Assembly: GCF_000702445.1 (NCBI RefSeq)
Contig: NZ_JNIF01000004.1
Location: forward strand, 124,001-188,000
From: Bryobacter aggregatus MPL3
Lineage (GTDB): Bacteria > Acidobacteriota > Terriglobia > Bryobacterales > Bryobacteraceae
Direction: 5' to 3'
Length of the DNA: 64,000 bases
Every line of letters starts with the position of its first letter. Position 1 is the stretch's first letter. This document shows, in pieces, positions 29,386-42,825 of the stretch. The position numbers and the translations under genes were made by a program. The notes under the pieces are model-generated. The model did no database searches. It saw nothing but the letters and a program-made list of their open reading frames with translations, and was not told the DNA's origin.

Positions 29386-29462
29386 GGGCGCGTAGCTCAG
29401 CTGGTTAGAGCGCCTGCTTCACACGCAGGAGGTCCGGGGTTCGAGTCCCTGCGCGCCCACCA
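29386..29462 (+). tRNA. tRNA-Val (anticodon CAC)
   Basis: 77 nt including an encoded CCA. Acceptor arms GGGCGCG and CGCGCCC pair perfectly. The anticodon stem CCTGC/GCAGG encloses the loop TTCACAC with anticodon CAC, reading GTG valine codons. The T-loop GGTTCGAGTCC is standard. It is a possible integration site for the following island, but I could not find a repeated 3' end. Confidence 0.96.
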
Positions 29463-29532: not shown

Positions 29533-29548
29533 TGGCCCTACTCGTGCA
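29533..29548 (+). promoter_or_regulatory. Sigma-54-type -24/-12 element upstream of BON gene 1
   Basis: TGGCCCTACTCGTGCA: the -24 GG and -12 GC are separated by exactly 10 nt, with TGGC and TGCA matching the consensus cores. Predicted start of transcription near 29559, 15 nt before ATG 29574. Confidence 0.55.
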
Positions 29549-29573
29549 AGTAAACATGACGAGGATGGGAACG

Positions 29574-30221
29574 ATGATGAGAGCGGAACAACTGAAACGG
29601 GATGTGGAGCAGGAGCTCAGTTGGGACCCGAGTGTGCACTCTGAGCACATTGGGGTCTCTGTGAACAATGGCGTTGTCGCACTCGAGGGGCACGCCGAGA
29701 GTTTTTACGAGAAATGGGCCGCGGAGCGGGCGGCACTCCGCGTCGCTTCTGTCAAGGCTGTGGCGAGTGAAATCAAAGTCGAACTGCCTTTTGCTGCTTC
29801 CCGTACGGATGAGGACATCGCGCAATCTGCCATGGAGTGTCTGAAGGAGAGTTCCCTGATTCCCAAAACGGTCAGGATTCTTGTTGCAGACGGTTGGGTC
29901 ACCCTCCACGGAACGGTTCAGGCGCAGTACCAGAGAAGAGAAGCGGAGGTTCTTGTTCGTCCCTTGATGGGAGTCAAAGGGGTAACAAACGAGATTTCGA
30001 TTGAACCCAAAGCGATCAGTGCGGATGTAAAGCTGAAGATCGAGAAGGCACTGAAACGCAGTGCTGCGGTGGACGCCAGCCATATTTCTGTCGAAGTCAT
30101 TGGCCGCATTGTGACGCTCCGGGGGACGGTGCGCTCGTGGAAGGAACGCGAAGCTGCAGAGACCGCAGCGTTCTTTGCCCCCGGTGTCGTTCAAGTTGAG
30201 AATCTCATTGCCATTGCATAG
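29574..30221 (+). CDS. Triple-BON-domain protein 1
   Basis: 215 residues, three consecutive BON domains at about 5-75, 80-145 and 150-215 (DVEQELSWDP, ALEGHAESFYEKWAAERA, VTLHGTVQAQYQRREAEVL, VTLRGTVRSWKEREAAETA). No signal peptide or lipobox is visible, so it is predicted cytoplasmic or to use an unusual route. Start chosen by alignment with the paralogue at 38901-39548, which begins MNTSEQLK against MMRAEQLK here; GAGG lies 9 nt upstream. It stands first in the stress-type island and behind a sigma-54-like element. BON domains usually bind lipid or other proteins in envelope-stress functions. Confidence 0.88.
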   Translation: MMRAEQLKRDVEQELSWDPSVHSEHIGVSVNNGVVALEGHAESFYEKWAAERAALRVASVKAVASEIKVELPFAASRTDEDIAQSAMECLKESSLIPKTVRILVADGWVTLHGTVQAQYQRREAEVLVRPLMGVKGVTNEISIEPKAISADVKLKIEKALKRSAAVDASHISVEVIGRIVTLRGTVRSWKEREAAETAAFFAPGVVQVENLIAIA

Positions 30222-30257
30222 ACATGAACTGGGTGTCAGTTTCCTTTAGGACCCCGT

Positions 30258-31310
30258 ATGCATGAGTCCGCTCGCGAGACAACGACAGCGCAGCCGGATG
30301 GACGGTCTGCCGGAATGATGAAAGCAGTCTTTCTCGCCGCGCCTGCTCCCCTCTGTACAAATCCCTTAGTGGTCCGGGAGGTCCCTTTGCCGACCCCTGG
30401 GCCTGGTCAGATTCTGCTCCGGGTTCGTGCTTGCGGTGTCTGCCGGACGGATCTTCATATTGTCGAGGGCGACCTACCTTCCTTGCGGACGCCGTTAATT
30501 CTTGGGCACCAGATTGTCGGCGATGTCGTTCAAGGTACTACGCCAGAGCTTCCGGCGGGAATCCGTGTGGGAATCTCGTGGGTAGGTGGCGTCGACGGGA
30601 CTTGCGGGCACTGTCTCCGTGGATTTGAAAATCTCTGTGATACTCCCACCTTCACCGGCTATACGGTGGATGGTGGCTATGCAGAGTATGCCGTGGCGCG
30701 TGCGGACTTTGCATTTCCCTTGCCAGACAGTCTTGACGATAGGCACGCGGCGCCCCTGCTTTGTGCCGGTATCATTGGCTACCGGAGTCTGCGTGTCGCA
30801 GATGTGCAGCCAGGTGACAAGGTCGGTCTATTTGGTTTTGGCTCCTCTGCTTCCTTGGCGATTGCCGTGTTGCACGAATGGAATTGTAAGGTCTACGTTG
30901 TTACAAGAGGCGAATCACACCGGAAACGGGCAGCTTCCTTGGGGGCCGCTTGGGTGGGCGAGGAAGGGGAGGAGGTTCCTGTTACGCTGGACCGCGCCAT
31001 TACCTTTGCTCCCAGTGGAGATGTCGTTGTTGCTGCTCTTGCCAGTCTTCGGAAAGGAGGAGTGGTTGCAATCAACGCGATCCATCTCGACCGCATGCCA
31101 CAGTTCGACTATGATCGGTTACTTTGGGGAGAACGTCAGATCCGGAGTGTTGCGAATATGACCCGTGTGGATGGAAGAGAGTTTCTTGCTTTGGCCGCTC
31201 AGATCAACCTGCGACCGCAAGTGCGCTGTTTCAAACTCGAAGAGGCGAATGAAGCGCTTGGGGCGGTGAAGCAGGAATCCTTAGGCGGATCTGCGGTGAT
31301 CCTTCCTTGA
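30258..31310 (+). CDS. Zinc-dependent alcohol dehydrogenase 1 (divergent metal sites)
   Basis: 350 residues, medium-chain dehydrogenase/reductase family. Catalytic zinc ligands are C62 (GVCRTD), H84 and C169 (LLCAG). The residue after H84 is Gln, not the usual Glu (GHQ instead of GHE). The structural-zinc lobe reads TCGHC...ENLC with only three cysteines (116, 119, 127), one short of the normal four. Rossmann motif GFGSSA is near 193. ATG 30258 has AGGA upstream; ATG 30315 is an alternative that matches typical N-termini (MKAVFL). Probably cytosolic; substrate unknown. It follows BON gene 1 by 36 bp and may share its transcript. Confidence 0.88.
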   Translation: MHESARETTTAQPDGRSAGMMKAVFLAAPAPLCTNPLVVREVPLPTPGPGQILLRVRACGVCRTDLHIVEGDLPSLRTPLILGHQIVGDVVQGTTPELPAGIRVGISWVGGVDGTCGHCLRGFENLCDTPTFTGYTVDGGYAEYAVARADFAFPLPDSLDDRHAAPLLCAGIIGYRSLRVADVQPGDKVGLFGFGSSASLAIAVLHEWNCKVYVVTRGESHRKRAASLGAAWVGEEGEEVPVTLDRAITFAPSGDVVVAALASLRKGGVVAINAIHLDRMPQFDYDRLLWGERQIRSVANMTRVDGREFLALAAQINLRPQVRCFKLEEANEALGAVKQESLGGSAVILP

Positions 31311-31376
31311 AGGCTTCGCACCGGCTGGCGCAAGGCCGGGTGTTTCTCACTTCCTTTGGGAAAGGAGCGGCGCCTC

Positions 31377-32066
31377 ATGTGTTTCTCCGCCACTGCTAAT
31401 TTTGCCGGCAGCGCCGTTCTGGCCACCATCGGAATCGCTACCCTGGCTGAGGTGAAAGACCGGCGGCAATTGCTTTTTGCGGCCTTGCCTCTCTTGTTTG
31501 CCACACATCAATTCATGGAAGGTTTTGTCTGGCTTGGCCTGCATCATACTTTGTCCGCTGCCGTGACAAACGGAGCCGGGGCCGCCTATCTTCTGTTTGC
31601 GCAGGGCCTCTTGCCTTTCCTGTTGCCACTCAGCGTTCTTCTGATTGAGCCGACAGAAGTTCGGAGGCGCCGCATGCTGGGATTCGTGTTGTTAGGCGGT
31701 GGCTTGGCACTGTATCTGCTGTGGGGCTTGATTGCCTATCCGATGGAAGTCTCTGCGTTTCATCACAGCATCGTTTACTTCAATCCGATCACGAACACCA
31801 ATACCGTCGCGGTTCTTTATGTGATTGCCACCTGTGGAGCTTTGTTCTTTTCGGGATTTGACGGTCTTGTTGTGCTCGGAATCGCAAACCTGATTGGGCT
31901 TCTTGTTGTCATGGTCATTGCCCGTTACGCCTTCACTTCGATCTGGTGCGCTTATGCAGCGGTCGTGAGCGTCTTGATTTATTTTCATTTCCGCCGCAGG
32001 CGCTTGATCCCGGAAGAGCGCCTGCGATTCCGGCACAACAACATCTCGCCTTCAGGCGCGCAGTAA
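31377..32066 (+). CDS. DUF6629-like polytopic membrane protein
   Basis: 229 residues starting MCFSATA, a beginning I recognise from DUF6629 membrane proteins. About seven hydrophobic segments (VLATIGIATLA, LLFAALPLLFATHQFMEG, LPFLLPLSVLLI, LLGGGLALYLLWGLIAYP, AVLYVIATCGALFF, ANLIGLLVVMVIARY, YAAVVSVLIYF). The start ATG 31377 is supported by AGGAG about 10 nt upstream. Function unknown. It lies 66 bp after alcohol dehydrogenase 1 and overlaps the convergent small-protein gene by 15 bp. Confidence 0.8.
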   Translation: MCFSATANFAGSAVLATIGIATLAEVKDRRQLLFAALPLLFATHQFMEGFVWLGLHHTLSAAVTNGAGAAYLLFAQGLLPFLLPLSVLLIEPTEVRRRRMLGFVLLGGGLALYLLWGLIAYPMEVSAFHHSIVYFNPITNTNTVAVLYVIATCGALFFSGFDGLVVLGIANLIGLLVVMVIARYAFTSIWCAYAAVVSVLIYFHFRRRRLIPEERLRFRHNNISPSGAQ

Positions 32067-32396
32067 CCTGCTATTGCCCGCCCGTAACTGTTCGGACGCG
32101 GCGTACCAGTCCTCGAGAGCGGTACCGTTCGGGCAACCTCTCGATTGCCAGCGTTCATAAGCGAGGGTGGCGATCTCCTGATGCCCAAACGGGATGATGC
32201 CGTGTGCAGCCGCCAGGATCTGGCTCTGGCGATGTGCTTTCTGGGTATGCTCTAGAGCATTTCGTGTCTGTTCCTGACCGGTGATATGGTCCTGTTTGCC
32301 GTGCTGTTCTGCAACGCGATGGGCGTGAGCGGCCGCGTCATGCAATTCGGCCGCGCGGCGATGGCCATTGGGGGGATTTTTTTGATGGATCGACAT
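32052..32396 (-). CDS. His/Ala-repeat small protein with C-terminal DUF2934-like domain
   Basis: 114 residues. The first half carries spaced histidines and alanines (HRRAAELHDAAAHAHRVAEQH) and a long helix (RNALEHTQKAHRQSQ). The second half has the short motif EIATLAYERWQSRGCPNG followed by ALEDWYAASEQL, which looks like DUF2934, a small domain common in Acidobacteria and Proteobacteria. The first half is paralogous to the 65-residue product encoded directly upstream (3-bp gap). Function unknown; metal binding by the histidines is conceivable but not shown. Confidence 0.75.
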   Translation of the reverse strand: MSIHQKNPPNGHRRAAELHDAAAHAHRVAEQHGKQDHITGQEQTRNALEHTQKAHRQSQILAAAHGIIPFGHQEIATLAYERWQSRGCPNGTALEDWYAASEQLRAGNSRLLRA

Positions 32397-32399
32397 AAC

Positions 32400-32597
32400 T
32401 TAAAGACTCACAATCTGCCCTGACCTGCTGTGGGCTTCTTCGGCAAATTTAAAGGCTTGCTTGGAATATTCCAGAGCCCGGGTGGCGTGCCAGCGGCCTC
32501 CATCGCCATCGCCCTTTTCTTCATGCTCTGCCGCGGTGCGATGGGCGCGTGCGGCTAATGCATGCTGTTCGGCTGCTCTTTGGTGGGATTCGTGCAT
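32400..32597 (-). CDS. Short His/Ala-repeat protein
   Basis: 65 residues. ATG 32597 is set by a perfect AAGGAGG 7 nt upstream; the frame continues open much further upstream but lacks a ribosome site and crosses the regulatory region. The sequence is a run of H-x-x-A-A-type repeats (HQRAAEQHALAARAHRTAA), an acidic EHEEKGDGDGG turn, and a helix ALEYSKQAFKFAEEAHSRS. It is very similar in plan to the first half of the downstream 114-residue product. Predicted cytosolic, helical. Behind a sigma-54-like element at 32663-32648. Confidence 0.78.
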   Translation of the reverse strand: MHESHQRAAEQHALAARAHRTAAEHEEKGDGDGGRWHATRALEYSKQAFKFAEEAHSRSGQIVSL

Positions 32598-32614
32598 GGT
32601 GTGTCCTCCTTGAG

Positions 32615-32634
32615 AAGGGAACATTTGTTCCCTT
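32615..32634 (-). promoter_or_regulatory. 20-bp palindrome in leader of the short His/Ala protein mRNA
   Basis: AAGGGAACATTTGTTCCCTT has nine perfect base pairs around a TT spacer. It sits just upstream of the AAGGAGG ribosome site and about 4 nt after the predicted transcription start, so it may be a 5' stabilising hairpin or an operator. The GAAC-N4-GTTC core also resembles a Gram-positive LexA box. Confidence 0.6.
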
Positions 32635-32647
32635 TCTGCAGAACAAC

Positions 32648-32663
32648 TGCACATCATGGACCA
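32648..32663 (-). promoter_or_regulatory. Sigma-54-type element for the His/Ala small-protein operon
   Basis: Read on the minus strand: TGGTCCATGATGTGCA, with GG-N10-GC spacing exact and TGCA at -12. Predicted start near 32637, 40 nt before ATG 32597. Confidence 0.5.
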
Positions 32664-32705
32664 CTTGGAATCCTCGAAAGTTTGAGAGCCTGGCAGAACC
32701 GGTGA

Positions 32706-32721
32706 TGACCACATTCGGTCA
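32706..32721. promoter_or_regulatory. Conserved 16-bp palindrome, copy 1
   Basis: TGACCACATTCGGTCA. The arms TGACC/GGTCA match those at 39958-39973 with the same 6-nt spacer (14 of 16 positions identical). Candidate enhancer-binding-protein site. Confidence 0.5.
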
Positions 32722-32723
32722 CC

Positions 32724-32739
32724 CGACCAGCTAAGGTCA
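32724..32739. promoter_or_regulatory. Conserved 16-bp palindrome, copy 2
   Basis: CGACCAGCTAAGGTCA, 18 bp downstream of copy 1 (start to start). Same GACC-N6-GGTCA plan, with the left outer base C instead of T. Confidence 0.45.
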
Positions 32740-32837
32740 TTTTGCGGAAACCGTTGCTGCGCAACCGCATCGAGGTCCTTCTCCAGAGAATCGGAGTCGC
32801 GAAGAATGTCCCTCCCGGTGACGCGCCGGAATGAGGA

Positions 32838-32853
32838 TGGACCCAGGAATGCA
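32838..32853 (+). promoter_or_regulatory. Sigma-54-type element for YflT-like gene 1
   Basis: TGGACCCAGGAATGCA: GG-N10-GC spacing exact and TGCA at -12. Predicted start near 32864. A 14-bp GGACCA-AC-TGGTCC palindrome (32868-32881) follows within the leader. Confidence 0.5.
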
Positions 32854-32912
32854 TTCTCTTCTGGGCGGGACCAACTGGTCCGCACCATCTGAGAAAGAGG
32901 AGAAGAAATCCA

Positions 32913-33473
32913 ATGGCTTCCAATAACGACATCGTGGTCGCAATCTACGATACTCACGAGCAGGCAGAACAGGCCATCAAAGAATTACAGCGGAGTGGCT
33001 TCGACATGAAGAAGTTGTCGATTGTCGGTAAGAATCCGCACACCGAAGAGCACGTCGTGGGCTTCTACAATGCAGGCGACCGCATGAAGCGCTGGGGCGG
33101 TGCCGGTGCATTCTGGGGTGCTCTCTGGGGAATGCTCTTTGGCGCGGCCTTCTTCCTGATTCCCGGCTTTGGCCCTGTGCTGGTCGCCGGTCCTTTGGTG
33201 GCCTGGATCGTAGGCGCACTCGAAGGTGCTTTGGTTGTAGGCGGATTGAGCGCGATCGGAGCCGCGTTCTGGAGTATCGGCGTGCCGAAGGACAGCATCC
33301 TCCAGTATGAGACGGCAATCAAGACAGACAAATTTCTGGTTCTGGCTCATGCGGCTTCTGAGGAAGCGGCTAAGGCGCGGGACATCCTCAAACGCACGAA
33401 TCCTTCGGAAATGCACACGCATTCCATCCAACATGCCGCAGGAAATCCAGAACCTGCCACGCATGTTCTCTAA
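32913..33473 (+). CDS. YflT-like stress protein with glycine-zipper membrane segment 1
   Basis: 186 residues. The N-terminal 60 residues resemble the YflT/general stress protein 17M fold (VVAIYDTHEQAEQAIKELQ, then KLSIVGKNPHTEEHVVGFY). Two glycine-rich hydrophobic segments follow (FWGALWGMLFGAAFFLIPGFGP and WIVGALEGALVVGGLSAIGAA). A soluble tail contains VPKDSILQYETAIKTDKFLVLAH. Close paralogue of the protein at 42259-42798. ATG 32913 has GAGGAGA about 10 nt upstream. Function unknown; a stress-related membrane role is inferred from family and context. Confidence 0.82.
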   Translation: MASNNDIVVAIYDTHEQAEQAIKELQRSGFDMKKLSIVGKNPHTEEHVVGFYNAGDRMKRWGGAGAFWGALWGMLFGAAFFLIPGFGPVLVAGPLVAWIVGALEGALVVGGLSAIGAAFWSIGVPKDSILQYETAIKTDKFLVLAHAASEEAAKARDILKRTNPSEMHTHSIQHAAGNPEPATHVL

Positions 33474-33494
33474 GCTACCGCAGCAGTCTCAGCA

Positions 33495-33510
33495 CGGAAG
33501 ACCGGTTGCC
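33495..33510 (+). promoter_or_regulatory. Weaker sigma-54-type element upstream of alcohol dehydrogenase 2
   Basis: CGGAAGACCGGTTGCC: spacing exact and the -12 TTGC perfect, but -24 begins CGG rather than TGG. Predicted start near 33521, 41 nt before ATG 33562. Confidence 0.35.
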
Positions 33511-33561
33511 TTCCGTAGCGCATCAGCATAGCATCAGACTGAGCTGTGGAAAGGAATCAGC

Positions 33562-34587
33562 ATGAGCGCAAAAGGTCTCGCGGCCATCGCACGGAAGTTT
33601 CACGAGCCCCTTTCGATCGAGGAAATGCAATTTCCAGATCCGGCACCGAATGAAGTTCTCGTCAAAATGATCGTGAGCGGTGTCTGTCACACCGACCTCC
33701 ATGCGGTAAATGGAGACTGGCCGATCCAGCCGCCTCTTCCCTTTGTGCCAGGGCATGAAGGCGTGGGAATTGTCGTTCAGGCAGGCTCTGCCGTTAAGAA
33801 CCTCAAGGAGGGGGATAGGGTCGGTCTGCCCTGGCTACATCAGGCTTGCGGCTATTGTGAATGGTGCCTTAGTGGCTGGGAGACGCTTTGCCCAAAGGCC
33901 GTCTTTGGAGGTTACTCGGCGAACGGCAGTTTTGCAGAGTATGCGATCGCCTCGGCTGCCTACGCGATTCCAATCCCGGCGGATCTGAGCTCCAAAGCTG
34001 CGGCACCCATTTTGTGTGCCGGGGTGACGACATGGAAGGCGCTCAAGCAAGCAGAACTACAGGCAGGCAACTGGGTTGCGATCTCTGGAATCGGAGGGCT
34101 GGGACATCTGGCCATCCAGTACGCGCAGGCCATGGGACTGAACATCGCTGCGATTGATGTCGCCGATGACAAGCTCGCCTTGGCCCGCTCCCTGCAGGCC
34201 AACCTGGTGATCGATGCACGAAAGACCGATCCCGCCGAGTTTCTGCAACAGAAAATCGGTGGCGCCCATGGCGTGATTCTCACCGCTCCCTCTCAGGCTG
34301 CCTTCCGGGAGGGCCTGGGCATGACACGCAGAAAAGGGACTTGTGTTCTCGTGGGCTTGCCTGCGGGAGATCTCCCGATTCCCATCTTCGACATGATTCT
34401 GAGAGGCATTACTCTTCGCGGATCTTTGGTGGGCACTCGCAATGACCAAGTGGAGGCTCTTTCTTTTGCCAGCCACGCACAAGTCATTGCCGAGATCCAT
34501 TTGCGGCCCTTCCGGGAAGTCAATGAGGCGCTCACCGGACTGGCGAATGCGAAAGTAACGGGACGCACGGTGCTAACGTTTGAGTAG
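33562..34587 (+). CDS. Zinc-dependent alcohol dehydrogenase 2 (AdhP-like)
   Basis: 341 residues, canonical medium-chain alcohol dehydrogenase. Catalytic zinc C42 (GVCHTDLHA), H65-E66 (PGHEGVG) and C152 (LCAGVT). Structural zinc C96, C99, C102 and C110 are all present (ACGYCEWCLSGWETLC). Rossmann motif SGIGGLG near 175. The whole resembles E. coli AdhP and related ethanol/aldehyde dehydrogenases. Compared with alcohol dehydrogenase 1 it keeps every metal ligand. ATG 33562 with AAAGGAA upstream. Confidence 0.92.
   Translation: MSAKGLAAIARKFHEPLSIEEMQFPDPAPNEVLVKMIVSGVCHTDLHAVNGDWPIQPPLPFVPGHEGVGIVVQAGSAVKNLKEGDRVGLPWLHQACGYCEWCLSGWETLCPKAVFGGYSANGSFAEYAIASAAYAIPIPADLSSKAAAPILCAGVTTWKALKQAELQAGNWVAISGIGGLGHLAIQYAQAMGLNIAAIDVADDKLALARSLQANLVIDARKTDPAEFLQQKIGGAHGVILTAPSQAAFREGLGMTRRKGTCVLVGLPAGDLPIPIFDMILRGITLRGSLVGTRNDQVEALSFASHAQVIAEIHLRPFREVNEALTGLANAKVTGRTVLTFE
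34559..34574 (+). promoter_or_regulatory. Weak sigma-54-type match upstream of mgtA
   Basis: CGGGACGCACGGTGCT inside the 3' end of alcohol dehydrogenase 2. Spacing is exact and ACG after GG matches consensus, but the first base and the -12 flank deviate. Predicted start about 86 nt before ATG 34671. Confidence 0.25.
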
Positions 34588-34670
34588 TCTCTTCTTCGCC
34601 AAGCGCCAATGTATCGGCAAGTCCGGTGTGATGCACAAATCGAAAGCTTTCTCCCCCGCTCAGGAGGCCG

Positions 34671-37298
34671 ATGACAACGCCTGATGCAACGGCGAAGCTC
34701 GCCGAGCCGCCTGCTAAAAACGGGAAGAACAAGAAGATTCAGGTCTCTCCTGTGGTTCTGGATGCGGCCCGGAAACCCGGCGATGAACTGCTCCGGGATT
34801 TGAACACCTCTCCCTCTGGACTCACGCAATCTGAAGCCGAACACCGTGCGCGCACTACTGGTCCGAATGAAGTGGCGCAAGAGAAAGAGGAAGGCTGGTT
34901 CGCTCGCCTTCTGAAAATTCTTCGCAACCCGCTGGTGGTCCTTCTGGGGATACTCTCCGCGATCTCCTTTGCCACAGGTGACATGAGGGCGGGCATCGTG
35001 ATTGCCATCATGGTCGTGGTTGGAGCTGCACTGCGCTTCATCCAGGAAGCTCGCGCCGATGCCGCTGCGGCAAAGCTCAAGGCCATGATTCATGTCACCG
35101 CTACCGTCATCAGGGACGGGAAGGCGAGAGAGATTCCGCTCCACGATCTGGTGCCCGGCGACATCATCCAGCTTTCCGCAGGGGACATGATTCCGGGCGA
35201 TGTGCGCTTGTTAAGTTCGAAGGATTTATTTGTAAGTCAGGGGAGTTTGACAGGCGAGTCGCTTCCCGTCGAGAAGTTCCACGATCCGGCCACCAATCCC
35301 GCAGCTTCCCCCATCGAACTCAGCAACATCTGCTTCATGGGCACCAGCGTCGAAAGTGGCACCGCGACGGCGGTGGTGATCACCATCGGCATCCAGACCT
35401 ATCTCGGCAGCATGGCCCGGTCCATCATCGGCGAACGTGTCTTGACCAGCTTCGACGAAGGACTCAATCGCTTCACCTGGCTCATGATCTGGCTGATGGC
35501 CGTGATGGTGCCGCTGGTCTTTTTGATCAACGGATTTACGAAGCACGATTGGCAGGGGGCCTTCTTTTTCGCCATGGCGGTAGCCGTAGGCTTGACGCCA
35601 GAGATGCTTCCCATGGTGGTGTCTGTTTGTCTGGCCAAAGGGGCGCTTGCCATGAGCCGCAGAAAGGTGATCGTCAAGCGGCTGAATTCGATCCAGAATT
35701 TTGGCGGCATGGATGTCCTCTGCGCGGACAAGACAGGAACACTGACTGAGGATCGCGTTGTTCTGATGCGGCATTGTGATGTTGCCGGCGAGGAGAGCGA
35801 TGACGTGCTGCTCAACGGCTATCTGATCAGCTACTTCCAGACGGGATTGCGGAACTTGCTCGATCGCGCCATTTTGGACAGCACCGACTTCCACGCAAGG
35901 GCGGAGATCGAGAAATACAAGAAGCTCGATGAGATCCCCTTCGACTTCACCCGGCGCATGATGTCCGTGCTAGTGGCAGATCCCGATGGCCATGCAATCC
36001 TTCTCACCAAAGGCGCTCCGGAGGAAGTCTTCAAACAGTGCTCTCAGTTCGAGCTGAACGGGAAGATCTCGCCCATGGATCCGGACCGCATCGTCGACCT
36101 GCGCGCTGAGTATGAGGAGCTCAGCAGCGATGGCTTCCGCGTGCTTGCGGTGGCCACGAAACAGTTTCAGGGGAAGACCGTTTGTTCAAAGGACGATGAG
36201 CACGATCTGCTGCTGCGCGGCTATGTCGCGTTTCTCGATCCGCCCAAGAGCACGGCTGCGCGTTCTCTGGAAGCCCTGCACCAACACGGTGTCGTGGTCA
36301 AGATCCTGACAGGGGATAACGAACTCATCAGTCGCAAGGTTTGCAAAGACGTCGGTCTGCTTCCTGATCCGATGCTGCTTGGCCGCGATGTCGAGAAGAT
36401 GTCCGATACGGAACTGGCTGACGCCGCCGAGAAGACGACACTCTTCGCTCGGCTCTCTCCGGCACACAAGGAGCGAGTGATTCGGGCTCTTCGCGGCAAG
36501 GGGCATGTGGTGGGTTTTATGGGCGATGGCATTAATGATGCCCCCGCATTGCGAGCGGCCGATGTCGGGATCTCGGTAGATACAGCCACCGATATTGCGA
36601 AGGAATCGGCAGACCTGATTCTGCTGGAGAAGGATCTGATGGTGCTCGAAGGTGGTGTCGTGGAGGGCCGCAAGGTCTTCGCAAACATCTTGAAGTACAT
36701 CCGGATGGGCGCCAGTTCTAACTTCGGGAACATGTTCAGCGTGCTGGGCGCGAGTGCCTTCCTCCCCTTTCTCCCGATGGCGCCGATCCAGGTGCTGACG
36801 AATAATCTTCTCTACGATTTCTCGCAGGTGCCGATCCCTTCAGACAATGTAGATGAGGAGCAGGTCGCCCGGCCGCGGCCCTGGAACATCGGAGAGATCA
36901 GGCGGTTCATCCTCTTTGTCGGGCCGATCAGTTCGATCTTTGACTACACAACATTTTTTGTGATGCTCTGGGTTTTCAACTGCTGGGACCCCTCGCGCGT
37001 TGCCGTGTTTCAAACCGGCTGGTTCATCGAATCGTTGATGACGCAGACGCTGATCATTCATGTCATCCGCACCAATAAGATCCCGTTTCTGCAGAGCCGG
37101 GCTAGTCTGCCGCTTACGCTCACAACGCTCTCGATCATGGGGCTGGGCATCTGGCTGCCGTATTCTCCGTTAGCTTCCTCACTGGGCTTTACACCGCTGC
37201 CCCTGCTGTATTGGCCGATTCTTCTGCTAACGCTTCTTGCCTACATGGGCCTGACGCAGATGGTGAAGGTCTGGCTGCTCCGCAAGAGATGGATCTAA
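34671..37298 (+). CDS. mgtA: Magnesium-importing P-type ATPase (MgtA/MgtB-like)
   Basis: 875-residue type III P-type ATPase. The phosphorylated aspartate is in DKTGTLTED (about D353), the actuator motif LTGES near 190, and the hinge GDGINDAPALRAADVGISV near 617. The C-terminal helix bundle has MGASSNFGNMFSVLGASAF and LTNNLLYDFSQVPIPSDNVD, both highly characteristic of MgtA. Inner membrane; couples ATP hydrolysis to Mg2+ uptake. ATG 34671 has AGGAGG 5 nt upstream. No magnesium riboswitch or leader peptide is visible. Its 3' end overlaps the SpoIIE-type gene by 4 bp antisense. Confidence 0.95.
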   Translation: MTTPDATAKLAEPPAKNGKNKKIQVSPVVLDAARKPGDELLRDLNTSPSGLTQSEAEHRARTTGPNEVAQEKEEGWFARLLKILRNPLVVLLGILSAISFATGDMRAGIVIAIMVVVGAALRFIQEARADAAAAKLKAMIHVTATVIRDGKAREIPLHDLVPGDIIQLSAGDMIPGDVRLLSSKDLFVSQGSLTGESLPVEKFHDPATNPAASPIELSNICFMGTSVESGTATAVVITIGIQTYLGSMARSIIGERVLTSFDEGLNRFTWLMIWLMAVMVPLVFLINGFTKHDWQGAFFFAMAVAVGLTPEMLPMVVSVCLAKGALAMSRRKVIVKRLNSIQNFGGMDVLCADKTGTLTEDRVVLMRHCDVAGEESDDVLLNGYLISYFQTGLRNLLDRAILDSTDFHARAEIEKYKKLDEIPFDFTRRMMSVLVADPDGHAILLTKGAPEEVFKQCSQFELNGKISPMDPDRIVDLRAEYEELSSDGFRVLAVATKQFQGKTVCSKDDEHDLLLRGYVAFLDPPKSTAARSLEALHQHGVVVKILTGDNELISRKVCKDVGLLPDPMLLGRDVEKMSDTELADAAEKTTLFARLSPAHKERVIRALRGKGHVVGFMGDGINDAPALRAADVGISVDTATDIAKESADLILLEKDLMVLEGGVVEGRKVFANILKYIRMGASSNFGNMFSVLGASAFLPFLPMAPIQVLTNNLLYDFSQVPIPSDNVDEEQVARPRPWNIGEIRRFILFVGPISSIFDYTTFFVMLWVFNCWDPSRVAVFQTGWFIESLMTQTLIIHVIRTNKIPFLQSRASLPLTLTTLSIMGLGIWLPYSPLASSLGFTPLPLLYWPILLLTLLAYMGLTQMVKVWLLRKRWI

Positions 37299-38584
37299 GC
37301 TGCGAGTGGTTCTCGCTTCGCCTGGATCTTCATTACCACGAGAGTAATGTCATCAAACTGAGCGGTGTCTGCCACGAAGGCGTTCAACTGACTGGCAATC
37401 TGTCTGCAGATCTCTGCGGCGCTAGTGGAAAGTGAGGCCTGAACAATTTCCTTCAACCGGGCTTCCCCAAACTCTTCCTGCTTCGCATTCAATGCTTCAA
37501 CTACCCCATCGGTATAGGCGATCAGCACGTCTCCATCATGGAGCTGCATGCCTCCAGATTGATAATGACTTTCGGCGACAATGCCAATCGGCAGGCCTCC
37601 TGTCGTCAGGCTTTCGACGATCGCGGGTGTGTCTCCATGCCGGAACAGAAATGGTGAATTTTGCCCGGCGTTCACGTAGCGGAGGGTCAGATCCGAGACA
37701 TCGAGAATTGCGAAGAAGAGCGTCGCATAGCGGCTGCTTGCTGTCATCTTGTACAACGAGTGGTTCAACTCGGTGACAAATCGTGTGAGTTCGCCCTGGC
37801 GGGCAACCAGATTCGTGCGGACCAAGCTTTGCAACGATGCCATCAAGAGTGCACTGGAAAGACCTTTTCCGGACACATCCCCGACGGCGATAGCGAGACG
37901 ATCTGGCGTGATGGGAATGAAATCGTAGTAGTCGCCGCCCACCTTGCGGGCAGCCTGATAAAAGAACCCGAACTCGACTCTCGGGTAGTCAGGTGCCTCT
38001 GACGGCAGCAGCCGTCCTTGTACTTCGCGGGCCAGTTCAAACTCCCGCCGGACATCGCGTTCCTTCGCTTCATGCTCATCTTGCAGCGCCTGCCGCATGG
38101 CATTGACAATGCTCACGACAACCAGCAACACAATGAGTCTTTCGGCAAGGTTCCAGTATGGAATCAGTACAGAACGGAGGGCGGGCAATCCTTGCCAGGC
38201 GTCTACAAGCCAGATGACTGCGCTCACCAGACAACTGATGTAACCCCATCTGCGTCCAAGAAACCAGACTCCATAGAGCGCCGGAATCAGATAGAGCGCG
38301 AACAGGGATAGATCGCGATCCACCGTAAAATCGAGCCCTGCAATCAATACGATCAGTGCCAGCAGAATCAGTGCATGGACGGATCTTGGCTGCCGCCTCA
38401 GGTAGGTCAGCACATTCCATTGCTGCTGCTCCTCGTCGAATCCGTCAAGAGTGGGAGTGGGGCGATCTGCGAGATTCTGCATGAGAGTTTTGAATGGCTC
38501 CAGTGAGGAGACGCATTCCTGCGCACACTGGTGACATTCCGCCCGGGTGATACCTTTTGTGCGTTGGGAATGAAGAAAGGTCAT
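37295..38584 (-). CDS. Membrane-anchored SpoIIE/RsbU-type serine phosphatase
   Basis: 429 residues from ATG 38584. An N-terminal short Cys cluster (ECHQCAQEC) is followed by about four to five transmembrane helices (HALILLALIVLIAGLDF, SLFALYLIPALYGVWFL, YISCLVSAVIWLVDAW, ERLIVLLVVVSIVNAMR) and a linker helix. The PP2C SpoIIE domain has GGDYYDFIPI, VGDVSGKGLSSALLMASL, YTDGVVEAL and DDITLVVMKI, which together hold the metal-binding aspartates. Such enzymes dephosphorylate anti-anti-sigma factors; no partner STAS or anti-sigma gene is in the window. An upstream ATG at 38692 would add a doubtful leader. Confidence 0.9.
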   Translation of the reverse strand: MTFLHSQRTKGITRAECHQCAQECVSSLEPFKTLMQNLADRPTPTLDGFDEEQQQWNVLTYLRRQPRSVHALILLALIVLIAGLDFTVDRDLSLFALYLIPALYGVWFLGRRWGYISCLVSAVIWLVDAWQGLPALRSVLIPYWNLAERLIVLLVVVSIVNAMRQALQDEHEAKERDVRREFELAREVQGRLLPSEAPDYPRVEFGFFYQAARKVGGDYYDFIPITPDRLAIAVGDVSGKGLSSALLMASLQSLVRTNLVARQGELTRFVTELNHSLYKMTASSRYATLFFAILDVSDLTLRYVNAGQNSPFLFRHGDTPAIVESLTTGGLPIGIVAESHYQSGGMQLHDGDVLIAYTDGVVEALNAKQEEFGEARLKEIVQASLSTSAAEICRQIASQLNAFVADTAQFDDITLVVMKIQAKREPLAA

Positions 38585-38900
38585 ACCTATTACACAAAGT
38601 GGAGAGGGGACTGGGAACAAACTAATCGGTTCCGCGTTGGTCGAATCGACCAAATGCTCGCGATGCAAAAAGTGAAGAATTTCTAGCCTCAAGGACAGAA
38701 GTGCTCCCCTCGCTGGAAGGCTCGCGCTGCTGCACTTTCATCGTTGGCTGACCCCACTTTTCAATGTGGCAGCAGCGCGCGGAGCAGGAAGATTCGTGGT
38801 TCAGATTGGTGGATCGCGTGCTGTGCAAGACAGCGGGAGCACGCGATCCAAGCGAAAGGCTCCATCGCTGCATCCGATCGTTAAAGAAGGACAGAGAACA
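38585..38900. other. 316-bp highly structured intergenic region between SpoIIE-type gene and BON gene 2
   Basis: No gene. It contains a 17-bp palindrome TTGGTCGAATCGACCAA (38637-38653). A long stem has arms CGCGCTGCTGC at 38723-38733 and its complement at 38769-38779. A 13-bp perfect stem spans 38810-38850, and a sigma-54-type element lies at 38807-38822. The stems could be an RNA structure, attenuator or regulatory DNA; no Rfam-like family is recognised. Confidence 0.6.
38807..38822 (+). promoter_or_regulatory. Sigma-54-type element for BON gene 2
   Basis: TGGTGGATCGCGTGCT: GG-N10-GC spacing exact, TGCT at -12. It overlaps the left arm of the 13-bp inverted repeat 38810-38850. Predicted start near 38833, 68 nt before ATG 38901. 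Confidence 0.45.
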
Positions 38901-39548
38901 ATGAATACCTCCGAACAATTGAAAAATGATGTGGAGCAAGAGCTCAGTTGGGATCCGAGCGTACATGCCGAGAAAATCGGTGTCTCGGTGAACAATGGAG
39001 CGGTCGAACTGGATGGACATGTTGGAAGTTACTACGAGAAATGGGCGGCTGAACGGGCTGCTTTACGAGTGGCAAAAGTTCGGTCGGTTGCCAGTGAGAT
39101 TAAAGTGGATCTCCCTTCCACCTCAGCGCGCAGTGATACCGCGATTGCTCAGGCCGCATCCGATCATTTAAAGGCTAGCTACCTCGTGCCAGACACCGTC
39201 AAGGCCTTGGTGGCGGAGGGCTGGGTCACTCTCCAAGGAATGGTCAAAGGACAATATCAAAAGAGAGAGGCAGAGAATCTCGTTCGTCCATTGCTGGGAG
39301 TGAAAGGTGTAATTAATAACATTACTCTGGAACCGAAAGTAATCGCTTCCGATGTTAAGGTGCAGATCGAGAATGCGCTCAAACGGGATGCGCAAATCGA
39401 TGCCAGTGGGATCAGCGTGAGTGTTTCCGGAGATAAAGTCACGTTGCGTGGCACGGTCCGTTCTTGGATGGAACGCGAAGACGCTGAAACGGCCGCCTTC
39501 GCCGCTCCTGGCGTCATGACCGTGGAGAACCTGATCACGATTCACTAG
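38901..39548 (+). CDS. Triple-BON-domain protein 2
   Basis: 215 residues, paralogue of the product at 29574-30221 with identical length and the same three-BON plan (DVEQELSWDP, GHVGSYYEKWAAERAALRV, VTLQGMVKGQYQKREAENL, VTLRGTVRSWMEREDAETA). Near-identical blocks alternate with divergent loops, suggesting an old duplication under selection. Start ATG 38901 (MNTSEQLK) has a purine-rich GGACAGAGAAC upstream. No signal peptide is visible. Its promoter region is unusually structured (see 38585-38900). Confidence 0.88.
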   Translation: MNTSEQLKNDVEQELSWDPSVHAEKIGVSVNNGAVELDGHVGSYYEKWAAERAALRVAKVRSVASEIKVDLPSTSARSDTAIAQAASDHLKASYLVPDTVKALVAEGWVTLQGMVKGQYQKREAENLVRPLLGVKGVINNITLEPKVIASDVKVQIENALKRDAQIDASGISVSVSGDKVTLRGTVRSWMEREDAETAAFAAPGVMTVENLITIH

Positions 39549-39613
39549 AACTAAGCTGCTTCATTCTTCTCGAGTTCTTAGAGTCACACCATGGTGGACC
39601 CAAGGGATCTGCG

Positions 39614-39629
39614 TGGCCCGTGGATTGCA
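39614..39629 (+). promoter_or_regulatory. Best sigma-54-type element, upstream of the 49-residue Cys/His protein
   Basis: TGGCCCGTGGATTGCA differs from the consensus TGGCACG-N4-TTGCA at one position only, with exact GG-N10-GC spacing. Predicted start near 39640, 90 nt before ATG 39730. Confidence 0.6.
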
Positions 39630-39729: not shown

Positions 39730-39879
39730 ATGCAAGAAAAAATGGCAGGGAAACAATCCCATAAGTGTGATTGCGGGAAAGTTCTGGGCTCAGAAGCGGA
39801 ATACCAAGAACATAAGAAGAATTGCCATATGGGTAAGGAATCCCATGGGAAGAGCGGCGCACACGTAACGAGCCGTTAA
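39730..39879 (+). CDS. 49-residue Cys/His (zinc-finger-like) protein
   Basis: ATG 39730 with AGAGGAAAC 5-10 nt upstream. Residues C13 and C15 (KCDCGKVLG) plus H28 and C32 (EHKKNCH) form a C-x-C-x12-H-x3-C array, suitable for one zinc ion. The remainder is basic and glycine/histidine rich (KESHGKSGAH). No family recognised. It is flanked by a sigma-54-type element upstream and a strong hairpin downstream, so it appears to be an independently expressed small gene. DNA, RNA or protein binding cannot be told apart. Confidence 0.7.
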   Translation: MQEKMAGKQSHKCDCGKVLGSEAEYQEHKKNCHMGKESHGKSGAHVTSR

Positions 39880-39902: not shown

Positions 39903-39949
39903 GAAAGCAGCCCTGAAGGCGGAAGAACGACGCTCTCAGGGCTGCTTTC
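39903..39949 (+). terminator. Long hairpin after the 49-residue gene
   Basis: A perfect 14-bp stem (GAAAGCAGCCCTGA / TCAGGGCTGCTTTC) closes a 19-nt loop. There is only a short T-run, so it may be a terminator or a processing/attenuation structure ahead of the DUF3300 gene. Confidence 0.6.
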
Positions 39950-39957
39950 GATTCTCC

Positions 39958-39973
39958 TGACCATATCCGGTCA
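39958..39973. promoter_or_regulatory. Conserved 16-bp palindrome, copy 3
   Basis: TGACCATATCCGGTCA, extended by C and G to 18 bp (39957-39974). It lies between the hairpin and the DUF3300 start codon, 35 bp upstream. Matches the 32706 copy at 14 of 16 positions. I see no sigma-54-type element downstream of it. Confidence 0.5.
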
Positions 39974-40008: not shown

Positions 40009-41244
40009 ATGGCCCGAAACGTGCACATATACAGACAGGACATCAACCTCGTGACACCCTCATATCGCATTCCACTGTCCCTTTCTATCGTGATTGCTCT
40101 TGTCTGTGGACAGCAGCAGCCGATGTGGGCGCAAGGGCCGCCTCAGTTTCCACCTCCCGGTCAGACGCTGACAGCCAAACAGTTGGACGATTTGGTTGCG
40201 CCGATTGCACTTTATCCGGACCCCCTTCTCAGCCAGATCCTGGTTGCCTCCACTTATCCTTTGGAACTGGTGGAAGCCTCCCAATGGCTGAAACAGAATC
40301 CAGGTCTGACTGGCACGGCCCTGACAGAGGCCGCACAGGCTCAGAACTGGGATCCGAGCGTGCAGGCGCTGGTCGTTTTCCCCGATCTGGTGCAGCGGCT
40401 GAACCAGGACGTCACCTGGACGACCAATTTGGGGAATGCATTTTTGAGCCAACAAAACGACGTCATGGACGCCGCGCAGCGCATGCGCTTTAAGGCCCAG
40501 CAAGCAGGTAAGTTGTCCTCCACGCCCCAACAAGTCGTGACTACCACAAGCGACGCAGGACAGCCGGTGATCGAGATCGAGCCGGCGGATCCGCAGACGC
40601 TTTACTTGCCTTACTATGATCCCGTCTCGATCTGGGGACCTCCTCTTTACTATCCCTATGCAAGTTGGTTCTATCCGCCTTTTGTCGGGGGCGCCTACTT
40701 TGGCTTCGGCCTTGGTATTCCTCTTGGCCTCTACTTTGGCGGCGGCTGGGGCGGCTGGGGGAACTGGGGTTGGCGGCCAGGCTGGGGTGGGCATCGCATC
40801 ATTGTGAACAATGGCTTTATTCACCGCTATAACTTCAACGCAGGTGGACGCAGCGGCTTAGTGGGACGAAGCGATTGGTCGCATAACCCCACGCATCGCC
40901 AGGGAGTTCCGTATTCCAACCCAGGACTGGCGAACCGCTTCGGAGGGGGTGTGCGCCAGAATCTCCAATCCCGCCCGCTTGTGGGACAGGGACAGGCGGG
41001 AGGACAGAACCGCATGGGCAGTCCATCGGGAGGCCAGCGTCTGGGAGATCGGCAGATGGCTCCTAGCGCTCCCAATGGGAACCGAAGCGCGTTTGGCGGT
41101 GTGCGGGACGGCGGAGCTGCCCGAGTGCAAAGTGATCACGGATTCTCTAGTCTCGGTCCCGCACGAAGCGGCGGCGGAGGTGGCTCCATGGGCCGCGGTG
41201 GTGGCGGGGGTGGAGGTAGAGGCGGTGGTGGTGGACGTCGCTAG
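40009..41244 (+). CDS. DUF3300-family secreted protein
   Basis: 411 residues from ATG 40009 (MARNVHIY), with a signal-like hydrophobic stretch (PLSLSIVIALVCG). The DUF3300 domain (about 60-230) is marked by LDDLVAPIALYPDPLLSQILVAS, YPLELVEASQWL and WDPSVQALVVFPDLVQRL. After that comes a tyrosine-rich region (PYYDPVSIWGPPLYYPYASW), then a glycine- and arginine-rich C-terminus (GGGGRGGGGGRR) of low complexity. It is 16 bp from DUF2950, and the DUF3300-DUF2950 pair is common in Gram-negative bacteria. Function unknown; probably envelope. Confidence 0.9.
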   Translation: MARNVHIYRQDINLVTPSYRIPLSLSIVIALVCGQQQPMWAQGPPQFPPPGQTLTAKQLDDLVAPIALYPDPLLSQILVASTYPLELVEASQWLKQNPGLTGTALTEAAQAQNWDPSVQALVVFPDLVQRLNQDVTWTTNLGNAFLSQQNDVMDAAQRMRFKAQQAGKLSSTPQQVVTTTSDAGQPVIEIEPADPQTLYLPYYDPVSIWGPPLYYPYASWFYPPFVGGAYFGFGLGIPLGLYFGGGWGGWGNWGWRPGWGGHRIIVNNGFIHRYNFNAGGRSGLVGRSDWSHNPTHRQGVPYSNPGLANRFGGGVRQNLQSRPLVGQGQAGGQNRMGSPSGGQRLGDRQMAPSAPNGNRSAFGGVRDGGAARVQSDHGFSSLGPARSGGGGGSMGRGGGGGGGRGGGGGRR

Positions 41245-41259
41245 GAGCGAGAGGGACTT

Positions 41260-42207
41260 ATGACGACAATCAATTTTAGTGGACTGAGACTTCGGCTGAC
41301 CTGGCTTCCCGTGGTCAGCTGCCTATTTGGAGCTTCTCTTCTTTTACCGGCTGCTCCCAGTGCAGCGCAACGGAGCTTTGCAACCCCGCAGGAGGTCATC
41401 CAGGCAACGATTGACGCCGCGGATCGAAATGATACGGCAGCTCTTCTCCAGCTTTTTGGGCCTGAGGGCAAGGACATTGTCCAGTCGGGCAATCCCGATG
41501 AAGATCGGGCGGCGCGCGCGGAATTTGTGCGGGCGGGCCGGGAGAAGGTCGAAATCATTGAAGATAAACTGACTCCCGATCAGGTCACGGTCGCTCTCGG
41601 TGAAGAGGAATGGCCGTTTCCGGTTCCAATCGTTCGCCGTGACGGGAAGTGGCAACTGGATTCGGTGGCTGGCCGGATTGAAGTTCTGGCTCGCCGGATT
41701 GGCCGGAACGAGTTAAATGCGATCGAGGCGTGCCGCGGTTATGCCGAAGCCCAACTGGCATACGCTTCGCGCGTCCGGGACGGGGAACCGATCCTGAAGT
41801 ATGCGCAGAACATCGTCAGCAGTCCCGGCCGGCATGACGGACTGTATTCGGATGGCGATTCCAGCGTCCCAGTTCCGTTGGCCTTTGCCAATGCGACGGT
41901 TTCGAGCTCCAATCCATCCAGAAAGTTAGTTCCCTATCACGGATACTACTTCCGGATTCTCAAGGCACAAGGTCCGGCGGCGCCCGGCGGCGCCTTCAAT
42001 TATGTGGTGAGCAAGAACATGATTGGTGGTTTTGCTCTTGTCGCCTGGCCTGCGGAGTATGGCGTCACTGGTATTCGAACGCTGGTGATCAATCAGGATG
42101 GGGTGGTCTTTGAGAAGGATCTCGGGGCTGCTGGGACGGCCTCTCAGGTGAGCCAGATGACGCGGTTTAATCCCGACAAAACCTGGCACCCGGTGGTCCT
42201 GGAATAG
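41260..42207 (+). CDS. DUF2950-family secreted protein
   Basis: 315 residues with a signal peptide (VVSCLFGASLLLPAAPSAA). The DUF2950 hallmark segments are visible: FATPQEVIQATIDAADRND, AALLQLFGPEGKDIV, WPFPVPIVRRDGKWQLDS, and later HGYYFRILKAQGPAAPGGAFNY. The C-terminal part GFALVAWPAEYGVTGIRTL is typical. It follows the DUF3300 gene at 16 bp, so the two are probably one transcript. Periplasmic; function unknown. Confidence 0.92.
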   Translation: MTTINFSGLRLRLTWLPVVSCLFGASLLLPAAPSAAQRSFATPQEVIQATIDAADRNDTAALLQLFGPEGKDIVQSGNPDEDRAARAEFVRAGREKVEIIEDKLTPDQVTVALGEEEWPFPVPIVRRDGKWQLDSVAGRIEVLARRIGRNELNAIEACRGYAEAQLAYASRVRDGEPILKYAQNIVSSPGRHDGLYSDGDSSVPVPLAFANATVSSSNPSRKLVPYHGYYFRILKAQGPAAPGGAFNYVVSKNMIGGFALVAWPAEYGVTGIRTLVINQDGVVFEKDLGAAGTASQVSQMTRFNPDKTWHPVVLE

Positions 42208-42258
42208 TCAGGCTAAAGAACTCTTGAAAATTACGAATCCAATTACAAAGGAAAAAGA

Positions 42259-42798: not shown

Positions 42799-42825
42799 CT
42801 GTTCTTGCCCGGGAGGGCAAATCCA

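What the first reader, a model, noticed from the sequence alone, without database searches (positions are those of the whole stretch)
29533..39629. Five sigma-54-type (-24/-12) promoters confined to the stress island
Reading the intergenic regions of 29.5-40 kb by eye, I find TGG-N10-GC elements at 29533-29548, 32648-32663 (minus), 32838-32853, 38807-38822 and 39614-39629. All have exact GG-N10-GC spacing; four end in TGCA and one in TGCT. The last differs from TGGCACG-N4-TTGCA at one position. Each lies 15-90 bp upstream of a start codon. In about eight intergenic regions I inspected outside the island I saw no match of this quality. I infer that triple-BON, YflT-like, His/Ala and Cys/His small proteins form one sigma-54 regulon. 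No rpoN or activator gene is in the window, and the background rate was not computed.
Basis: partly seen in the sequence, partly recalled or inferred. Interest (0 to 1): 0.8.

Follow-up and report, generated by a model that had tools for sequence, protein, structure and literature searches.

The report
Sigma-54 stress regulon with enhancer sites
Several small stress-protein genes in this bacterial genome carry what look like the start signals of the special sigma-54 transcription system, and paired activator-binding sites shared with relatives point to the protein that probably switches some of them on.

Summary
The five sites exist as described. By a Salmonella sigma-54 matrix they are poor (9.2 to -4.9 bits), so letters alone do not prove them; comparison does much more. 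All 6 noncoding TGG-N9-TGCW sites found 10-150 bp upstream of a gene lie in the island (0.28 expected); the sixth, 40010, was missed. The genome has rpoN. Upstream elements of YflT, His/Ala and SYLF genes elsewhere often share the form TTGGYSC-N4-CGTGCW. Tandem palindromes TGACC-N6-GGTCA lie between the divergent His/Ala and YflT genes (32706-32739), a single one upstream of 40010. In 237 family genomes the tandem gives 249 matches against 7 for the reversed control and co-occurs with one PAS-AAA+-Fis activator (both 58, one only 21 and 11, neither 147). Of 15,097 gapped words tested, TGG-N9-TGC is the most enriched beside tandems (90 of 222 flanks against 12 of 218), helically phased. Sigma-54 control is well supported for 32648, 32838 and 40010, likely for the two triple-BON genes (29533, 38807; activator unknown), least certain for 39614. 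No expression data.

The parts
29533..29548 (+). -24/-12 type element TGGCCCTACTCGTGCA, 25 bp before triple-BON gene 1
   Evidence: Rank 2 of 127,968 with a matrix trained only on YflT-upstream sites of other genomes; rank 1 with the activator-site-linked matrix. No TGACC-N6-GGTCA site within 300 bp.
29574..30221 (+). triple-BON protein gene 1
   Evidence: Pfam BON, 3 stretches.
32403..32597 (-). His/Ala-rich small protein gene (stop codon at 32400-32402)
   Evidence: ORF; orthologs in islands of relatives; 0 Pfam families at E<=0.01.
32648..32663 (-). -24/-12 type element TGGTCCATGATGTGCA, 50 bp before the His/Ala gene
   Evidence: 8 of 10 distinct His/Ala upstreams (window included) have a TGG-N9-TGCW at 21-50 bp; activator tandem centre 59.5 bp away.
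32706..32739 (.). tandem activator-binding palindromes TGACC-N6-GGTCA, N2, CGACC-N6-GGTCA
   Evidence: One mismatch to the tandem consensus; 1 match with up to 3 mismatches in the window, 0.01 expected, 1 of 100 shuffles; ranks 1 and 3 of the window for a palindrome matrix from other genomes, tandem score 32.7 against 10.5 for the next.
32838..32853 (+). -24/-12 type element TGGACCCAGGAATGCA, 59 bp before the YflT-like gene
   Evidence: Weak by letters (-4.9 canonical; rank 518 by the YflT-only matrix; rank 11 by the activator-site-linked matrix); tandem centre 115.5 bp upstream.
32913..33473 (+). YflT-domain protein gene
   Evidence: Pfam YflT; relatives at E<=0.001 in 81 of 150 family genomes.
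38807..38822 (+). -24/-12 type element TGGTGGATCGCGTGCT, 78 bp before triple-BON gene 2
   Evidence: Rank 1 of 127,968 with the YflT-only matrix, rank 4 with the linked matrix. Overlaps a perfect 13-bp inverted repeat 38810-38822/38838-38850.
38901..39548 (+). triple-BON protein gene 2
   Evidence: Pfam BON, 3 stretches; 70% identical to gene 1.
39614..39629 (+). -24/-12 type element TGGCCCGTGGATTGCA, 100 bp before the Cys/His small protein
   Evidence: Best of the five by the Salmonella matrix (9.2 bits); rank 6 by the linked matrix, 103 by the YflT-only matrix; no activator site within 300 bp, no orthologs.
39730..39879 (+). Cys/His small protein ORF, 49 aa
   Evidence: ORF only; 0 Pfam families at E<=0.01; match in 1 of 150 genomes, its own.
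39958..39973 (.). single activator-binding palindrome TGACCATATCCGGTCA
   Evidence: Exact; one of 7 exact places in the 5.75 Mb genome; rank 2 of the window.
   Evidence: 10.3 bits canonical; rank 2 by the linked matrix, 20 by the YflT-only matrix.
40051..43629 (+). likely operon DUF3300, DUF2950, second YflT paralog, PRC-barrel
   Evidence: Four same-strand genes with 15, 51 and 27 bp gaps (coordinates); Pfam. That they form one transcript is inferred.

Best explanation
The elements are sigma-54 (-24/-12) promoters of an envelope and general-stress gene set. For 32648 (His/Ala), 32838 (YflT) and 40010 (DUF3300-DUF2950-YflT2-PRC), a bacterial enhancer-binding protein of PAS-PAS-AAA+-Fis architecture (in this genome at C3:1152765-1154780, 671 aa, found as L065:7765-9780) most likely binds palindromes TGACC-N6-GGTCA, oligomerises on sensing an unknown signal through its PAS domains, and remodels sigma-54 RNA polymerase at TGG-N9-TGCW by the ordinary ATP-driven looping mechanism. 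The two triple-BON promoters use the same kind of -24/-12 element but probably another activator. Shown by computation: rpoN, element, element conservation, tandem sites, co-occurrence and physical linkage with the activator gene, distance phasing. Inferred: that this activator binds this site, the signal, promoter activity, and the function of the genes.
For: rpoN with AID, CBD and DBD; the RpoN box reads TRRTVAKYRE in the protein tail printed (my search string ARRT/AKRT there gave no match). 23 PF00158 matches in the genome, 17 of them at E<=3.2e-46. The candidate activator has PF00158, HTH_8 and PAS, GAFTGA at 443, Walker A GETGTGKE at 396, Walker B region at 462. A matrix from 10 YflT-upstream sites of other genomes puts 38807 and 29533 first and second of 127,968 positions. 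Canonical sites upstream of YflT orthologs in loci titled Desulfocapsaceae (19.3 bits), Nitrospiraceae (18.6), Desulfobacteraceae (18.5) and Vicinamibacteria (15.7); at or above 11.5 bits 9 of 80 sense, 0 antisense, 0.75 in shuffles, 8 of the 9 with TGG-N10-GC. The SYLF gene has a canonical site in this genome (TGGCACGACACTTGCA, 20.2 bits) and variant sites in L160 and L240. Tandem sites: 249 matches in 79 of 237 family genomes against 7 for the reversed control; activator ortholog in 69 of 237; 58 both, 21 and 11 single, 147 neither, Fisher P 3e-26. Outside the family 10 of 393 genomes match. Unbiased search: TGG-N9-TGC is the top of 15,097 gapped words beside 111 tandems, 90 of 222 flanks against 12 of 218; distances have a period of 11.4 bp, 0 of 2000 resamples as strong. 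The palindrome matrix ranks the window's 32706, 39958 and 32724 first, second and third. The activator's own neighbourhood in this genome has the tandem (C3:1147608-1147641) with a TGG-N9-TGCA 18 bp before a start codon.
Against: Salmonella-matrix scores are low, two negative. No activator site near 29533, 38807 or 39614. Most YflT orthologs show no recognisable element: 20 of 30 fetched family loci and 66 of 80 named loci (14 have it, 4 antisense, 2.58 in shuffles) lack TGG-N9-TGCW. Triple-BON orthologs mostly lack it: at the 10-bit variant threshold 1 of 27 upstreams sense (the window itself) against 2 antisense and 0.30 expected. The single palindrome with up to one mismatch is not above chance in the window (3 against 2.02) nor in the genome (106 against 165 for the reversed control). 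21 genomes have the tandem without the activator at my cutoff and 11 the reverse. 38807 overlaps a perfect inverted repeat. Genome-wide TTGGYGC-N4-CGTGCW looks close to its reversed control in most of 150 genomes (by eye). No transcription data.
Confidence: 0.8

Rival explanations
1. The TGG-N9-TGCW strings are chance matches in GC-rich intergenic DNA; the genes use sigma-70 or ECF promoters.
For: Bare TGG-N10-GC is frequent (251 against 206.8); canonical scores are low; 32838 ranks only 518 by the YflT-only matrix.
Against: 6 upstream against 0.28 expected; matrices learned elsewhere put most of them near the top; recurrence before orthologs; unbiased recovery of TGG-N9-TGC beside the tandems.
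Confidence: 0.1
2. The element is the site of another DNA-binding protein, or part of a structured leader, that happens to contain GG-N10-GC; at 38807 the perfect inverted repeat would be an operator or RNA hairpin.
For: 38807 lies in a 13-bp perfect inverted repeat; the family variant CGTGCW differs from TTGCW.
Against: The same genes carry canonical sites in other lineages or genomes (YflT; SYLF); distances to the tandem are helically phased as for enhancers.
Confidence: 0.07
3. Only the activator-linked promoters (32648, 32838, 40010) are sigma-54 promoters; the BON and Cys/His elements are decayed or accidental.
For: No activator site within 300 bp of 29533, 38807 or 39614; BON orthologs mostly lack the element.
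Against: 29533 and 38807 are the two best window matches to a matrix built from YflT sites of other genomes; L071, a BON ortholog, has a 17.2-bit canonical site.
Confidence: 0.2

Closest known systems
Desulfovibrio vulgaris sigma-54 regulome (PMC4641369, passages seen)
   Same: Sigma-54 promoters with dedicated activators, mostly GAFTGA in the rows seen, including a single-component one, and envelope or general stress regulons.
   Different: Its main text holds no TGACC or GGTCA string and no word beginning BON or Acidobacteri; mostly response-regulator activators in the passages seen.
Phage-shock (PspF) type sigma-54 envelope stress regulons (recalled; PspF named in a reference seen)
   Same: Sigma-54 drives small envelope-stress proteins from one activator.
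   Different: Here a PAS-bearing activator, tandem TGACC-N6-GGTCA sites, different genes.
Salmonella sigma-54 regulon and matrix (PMC3844500, passages and part of Table 3 seen)
   Same: GG-N10-GC architecture, TGC at -12.
   Different: -24 box mostly TGGCAC or TGGCAT there; here TGGCCC or TGGTGC are common, with CGTGCW.
Multi-phylum sigma-54 regulon prediction (PMC12316311, outline, abstract and passages seen)
   Same: Predicts sigma-54 regulation outside Pseudomonadota; a passage names universal stress proteins in Planctomycetia.
   Different: No occurrence of 'Acidobacteri' in its main text; its supplements were not looked at.

Membership tests
sigma-54 (-24/-12) promoter | GG-N10-GC with TGC at -12 | tested here: met
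   All six; selected for it.
sigma-54 (-24/-12) promoter | good score against experimentally supported sites of another genus | tested here: not met
   Salmonella matrix 9.2, 4.3, 1.4, -4.4, -4.9 and 10.3 (40010) against 15.3-21.8 for training sites. The matrix comes from a distant, more AT-rich context, so this lowers confidence rather than excludes.
sigma-54 (-24/-12) promoter | good score against the lineage's own activator-linked sites | tested here: met
   Ranks 1, 2, 4, 6, 11, 12 of 127,968.
sigma-54 (-24/-12) promoter | rpoN in the genome | tested here: met
   Three sigma-54 Pfam domains.
sigma-54 (-24/-12) promoter | upstream activator site | tested here: inconclusive
   Found for 32648, 32838, 40010; not found for 29533, 38807, 39614.
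sigma-54 (-24/-12) promoter | transcription start about 12 nt past the GC, lost without rpoN | not testable with these tools
   Needs RNA.
bacterial enhancer-binding protein (candidate activator) | AAA+ PF00158 domain with GAFTGA, Walker A and B, Fis-type HTH | tested here: met
bacterial enhancer-binding protein (candidate activator) | binds TGACC-N6-GGTCA | tested here: inconclusive
   Co-occurrence and linkage only.

The most novel reading that the evidence does not exclude
In this family (inferred Acidobacteriota) a single-component PAS-domain activator with sigma-54 runs a dispersed envelope and general-stress response (YflT, His/Ala, SYLF, OmpA, YtxH, PRC-barrel, ferritin-like, Thivi_2564 and phosphoketolase-acetate kinase neighbourhood genes), a role that other bacteria give to sigma-S, sigma-B or ECF factors, with its own -24/-12 dialect (TTGGYSC-N4-CGTGCW) and tandem enhancer TGACC-N6-GGTCA.
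Probability: 0.4. Interest if true: 0.8.

Novelty: new member of a known kind. Interest (0 to 1): 0.62.

Why it matters
Sigma-54 regulons outside a few model groups are mostly guessed from matrices (my general knowledge). Here enhancer site, promoter dialect, candidate activator and target genes are predicted together for one family, so a direct test (one activator, one footprint, one mutant) becomes possible, and families of unknown function (YflT, DUF3300, DUF2950, His/Ala proteins) gain a shared regulatory context.

Tried and rejected
Salmonella matrix as sole judge: rejected, too AT-rich in its spacer for this genome, and it scores many lineage sites low, although its low scores stand as evidence against. 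First upstream scan was invalid for loci on the minus strand; redone with tblastn orientation. Bare TGG-N10-GC as evidence: rejected, near background. Genome-wide TTGGYGC-N4-CGTGCW as a regulon finder: rejected, by eye near its reversed control in most of 150 genomes. Single palindrome with one mismatch in the own genome: below its reversed control (106 and 106 against 165 and 165), so only exact or tandem forms were used. A second palindrome type (GCAGANTCTGC, seen by eye upstream of sites in L158, L162, L163) was not found upstream of the window sites (6 matches with up to 1 mismatch, 3.66 expected). Automatic gene calling of the island put spurious ORFs over intergenic regions and was replaced there by hand-curated coordinates. 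Cys/His protein orthologs: none in 149 other genomes. Rfam at gathering thresholds: only a tRNA. Literature: search listings (open-access library only) showed no paper on a sigma-54 regulon of Acidobacteriota; absence from print is not proven.
Full report
WHAT WAS CHECKED. The window is G000:C4:124001-188000 of a 5.75 Mb genome in 4 contigs. Some family genomes have contigs of the same length as named MAG contigs titled Candidatus Sulfopaludibacter (38,951 bases) and Bryobacterales (113,262 bases), so I infer an Acidobacteriota family near Bryobacterales. The five elements are at the stated places with the stated letters.

BACKGROUND. TGG-N10-GC is not rare: 251 in the window against 206.8 in shuffles. 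TGG-N9-TGCW: 32 against 21.9. Noncoding, sense, 10-150 bp upstream of a gene: 6, all in the island, 0.28 expected, P about 5e-7. The sixth is 40010, upstream of a DUF3300-DUF2950-YflT-PRC gene string. The island genes were curated by hand and the rest by a crude caller; the crude caller alone gave 1. Outside the island 0.6 was expected and 0 seen, so 'confined' is weakly tested.

LETTER QUALITY. A matrix from 29 Salmonella sites (Table 3 of PMC3844500, seen) gives 4.3, 1.4, -4.9, -4.4 and 9.2 bits in coordinate order, against 15.3-21.8 for its own sites. By that yardstick none of the five reaches the training range.

CONSERVATION. Upstream (250 bp) of YflT-like orthologs in the same family, TGG-N9-TGCW occurs on the sense strand in 10 of 30 sequences (window included) against 0.68 in shuffles and 2 antisense; for triple-BON in 8 of 17 sequences (both window genes included) against 0.5 and 3 antisense. 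The common form before YflT is TTGGYSC-N4-CGTGCW. A matrix made from ten such YflT sites of other genomes, with no window sequence in it, ranks 38807 first, 29533 second, 32648 eleventh, 40010 twentieth, 39614 103rd and 32838 518th of 127,968 positions. In 80 named loci from many taxa (the best 80 of 486 confirmed), canonical scores of 11.5 bits or more lie upstream (300 bp) of YflT in 9 of 80 (0 antisense, 0.75 in shuffles), 8 of them with TGG-N10-GC, in loci titled Desulfocapsaceae, Desulfobacteraceae, Nitrospiraceae, Vicinamibacteria and Myxococcales; the other 71 have none at that level, and 66 of 80 have no TGG-N9-TGCW. His/Ala orthologs: 12 found, 10 distinct upstreams kept, 8 of these (window included) have the element at 21-50 bp; 4 of 10 reach 10 bits against 0.06 expected and 1 antisense. 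SYLF: 5 of 11 reach 10 bits, 0 antisense, 0.02 expected; the gene has TGGCACGACACTTGCA (20.2 bits) in this genome and TTGGTGCGACTCGTGCA or TTGGCGTGACCCGTGCA in L160 and L240, which ties the family dialect to the canonical promoter. Triple-BON orthologs mostly lack it (1 of 27 at 10 bits, the window itself, 2 antisense), though L071 has a 17.2-bit canonical site.

THE ENHANCER. Of 33 collected promoters, 32 had enough upstream sequence; 8 of these contain the gapped palindrome TGACC-N6-GGTCA and 11 TGAC-N8-GTCA, three of each being window promoters, two of which share one tandem. The window has one tandem (32706-32739, one mismatch, 0.01 expected), between the divergent His/Ala and YflT genes, and one more single copy (39958-39973). 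The single palindrome with one mismatch allowed is not above chance in the window (3 against 2.02) or the genome (106 against 165 for the reversed control); the exact palindrome occurs at 7 places in the genome, two of them in this island. A palindrome matrix from other genomes (29 tandems, own genome left out) ranks the window's copies first, second and third of all positions. The three other promoters have none within 300 bp.

FAMILY-WIDE TEST. The tandem TGACC-N7-GTCA-N2-TGACC matches 249 times in 79 of 237 family genomes, both strands counted, a fully symmetric tandem twice; the reversed control totals 7, summed by eye from the table. In 396 genomes drawn from the phylum 12 match, two of them from this family; the 10 others (of 393) give 11 matches against 6 for the reversed control, summed by eye. 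Beside the first 31 tandems TGG-N9-TGCW was found 22 times within 300 bp against 5.8 expected. Among 111 tandem loci, an unbiased count of all trinucleotide pairs with gaps 0-15 (15,097 seen in at least 12 flanks were tested) gives TGG-N9-TGC as the most enriched near the tandem: 90 of 222 flanks against 12 of 218 stretches 330-500 bp away (nominal P 1e-50, loci not all independent). The 93 distances from tandem to element have a period of 11.4 bp, stronger than all 2000 resamples. The window's distances, about 59.5 and 115.5 bp, fall in two of the observed clusters (57-61 and 114-118).

THE ACTIVATOR. Island loci of relatives contain a PAS-AAA+-Fis activator (L160, L207, L240, L249); other YflT loci hold activators of other types (L177, a response regulator; L193, L197, L201, L217, L231, L238, L241, L250). 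The counterpart here is L065:7765-9780, that is C3:1152765-1154780 (59% identical to the L160 protein over 692 aa; the other own-genome activators align over about 300-430 residues, mostly the AAA+ part). Upstream of it lie an ice-binding-like gene, acetate kinase and phosphoketolase; the tandem C3:1147608-1147641 and a TGG-N9-TGCA 18 bp before the start codon precede the ice-binding-like gene. Across 237 genomes the activator's PAS region at E<=1e-45 and the tandem co-occur (58 both, 21 tandem only, 11 activator only, 147 neither; P 3e-26), and at least 48 listed tandems lie on the activator's contig (rows picked by eye). Of 28 proteins scanned (27 of the 35 ORFs found beside tandems, eight left out as spurious-looking, plus one His/Ala protein of L163), 4 match SYLF (Ysc84), 2 Thivi_2564, and one each OmpA, YtxH, PRC-barrel, ferritin, rubrerythrin, DUF2934, SPFH, ice-binding, a histidine kinase domain, a low-molecular-weight phosphatase and sigma-70 region 2 among the families listed.

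VERDICT. Sigma-54 control is well supported for the His/Ala, YflT and DUF3300 promoters, likely for the two triple-BON genes but with the activator unknown and with 38807 lying in a perfect inverted repeat, and least certain for the Cys/His gene. Nothing here shows transcription. The class is known (a sigma-54 activator regulon); the particular regulon, its dialect and its enhancer were not found in the open-access searches made. Of papers I saw: passages of PMC3844500 and PMC4641369, outline, abstract and passages of PMC12316311, outline and abstract of PMC2725144, and search listings of the rest.

Noticed in passing
window 38810-38822 and 38838-38850: Perfect 13-bp inverted repeat with a 15-nt loop overlapping the 38807 element, and an 11-bp inverted repeat 38723-38733/38769-38779 upstream; could be an operator or another activator site.
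   Followed up: partly
L047:10221 (-) and 10721 (+), own genome C4 near 1162 kb: Two canonical divergent sigma-54 sites (16.8 and 20.2 bits) between an OmpA-like gene and a SYLF gene followed by a BON gene, near a response-regulator type activator.
   Followed up: partly
L158, L162, L163 (other family genomes): Variant sigma-54 sites whose upstream regions share a different palindrome-like element around GCAGATTCTGC, perhaps a second activator type (by eye).
   Followed up: partly
window 39730-39879: 49-aa Cys/His protein without a match in 149 other family genomes.
   Followed up: no
window 39905-39949: Terminator-like inverted repeat by eye (CAGCCCTGA...TCAGGGCTG followed by TTTC) just before the 39958 palindrome.
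   Followed up: no
window 29386-29459: tRNA gene directly before triple-BON gene 1, a possible island edge.
   Followed up: no
L214, L237, L252 (two loci titled Acidobacteriaceae, one Acidobacteria): A different shared string TGTCATAGTT 54-55 bp before YflT, suggesting another promoter type there.
   Followed up: no
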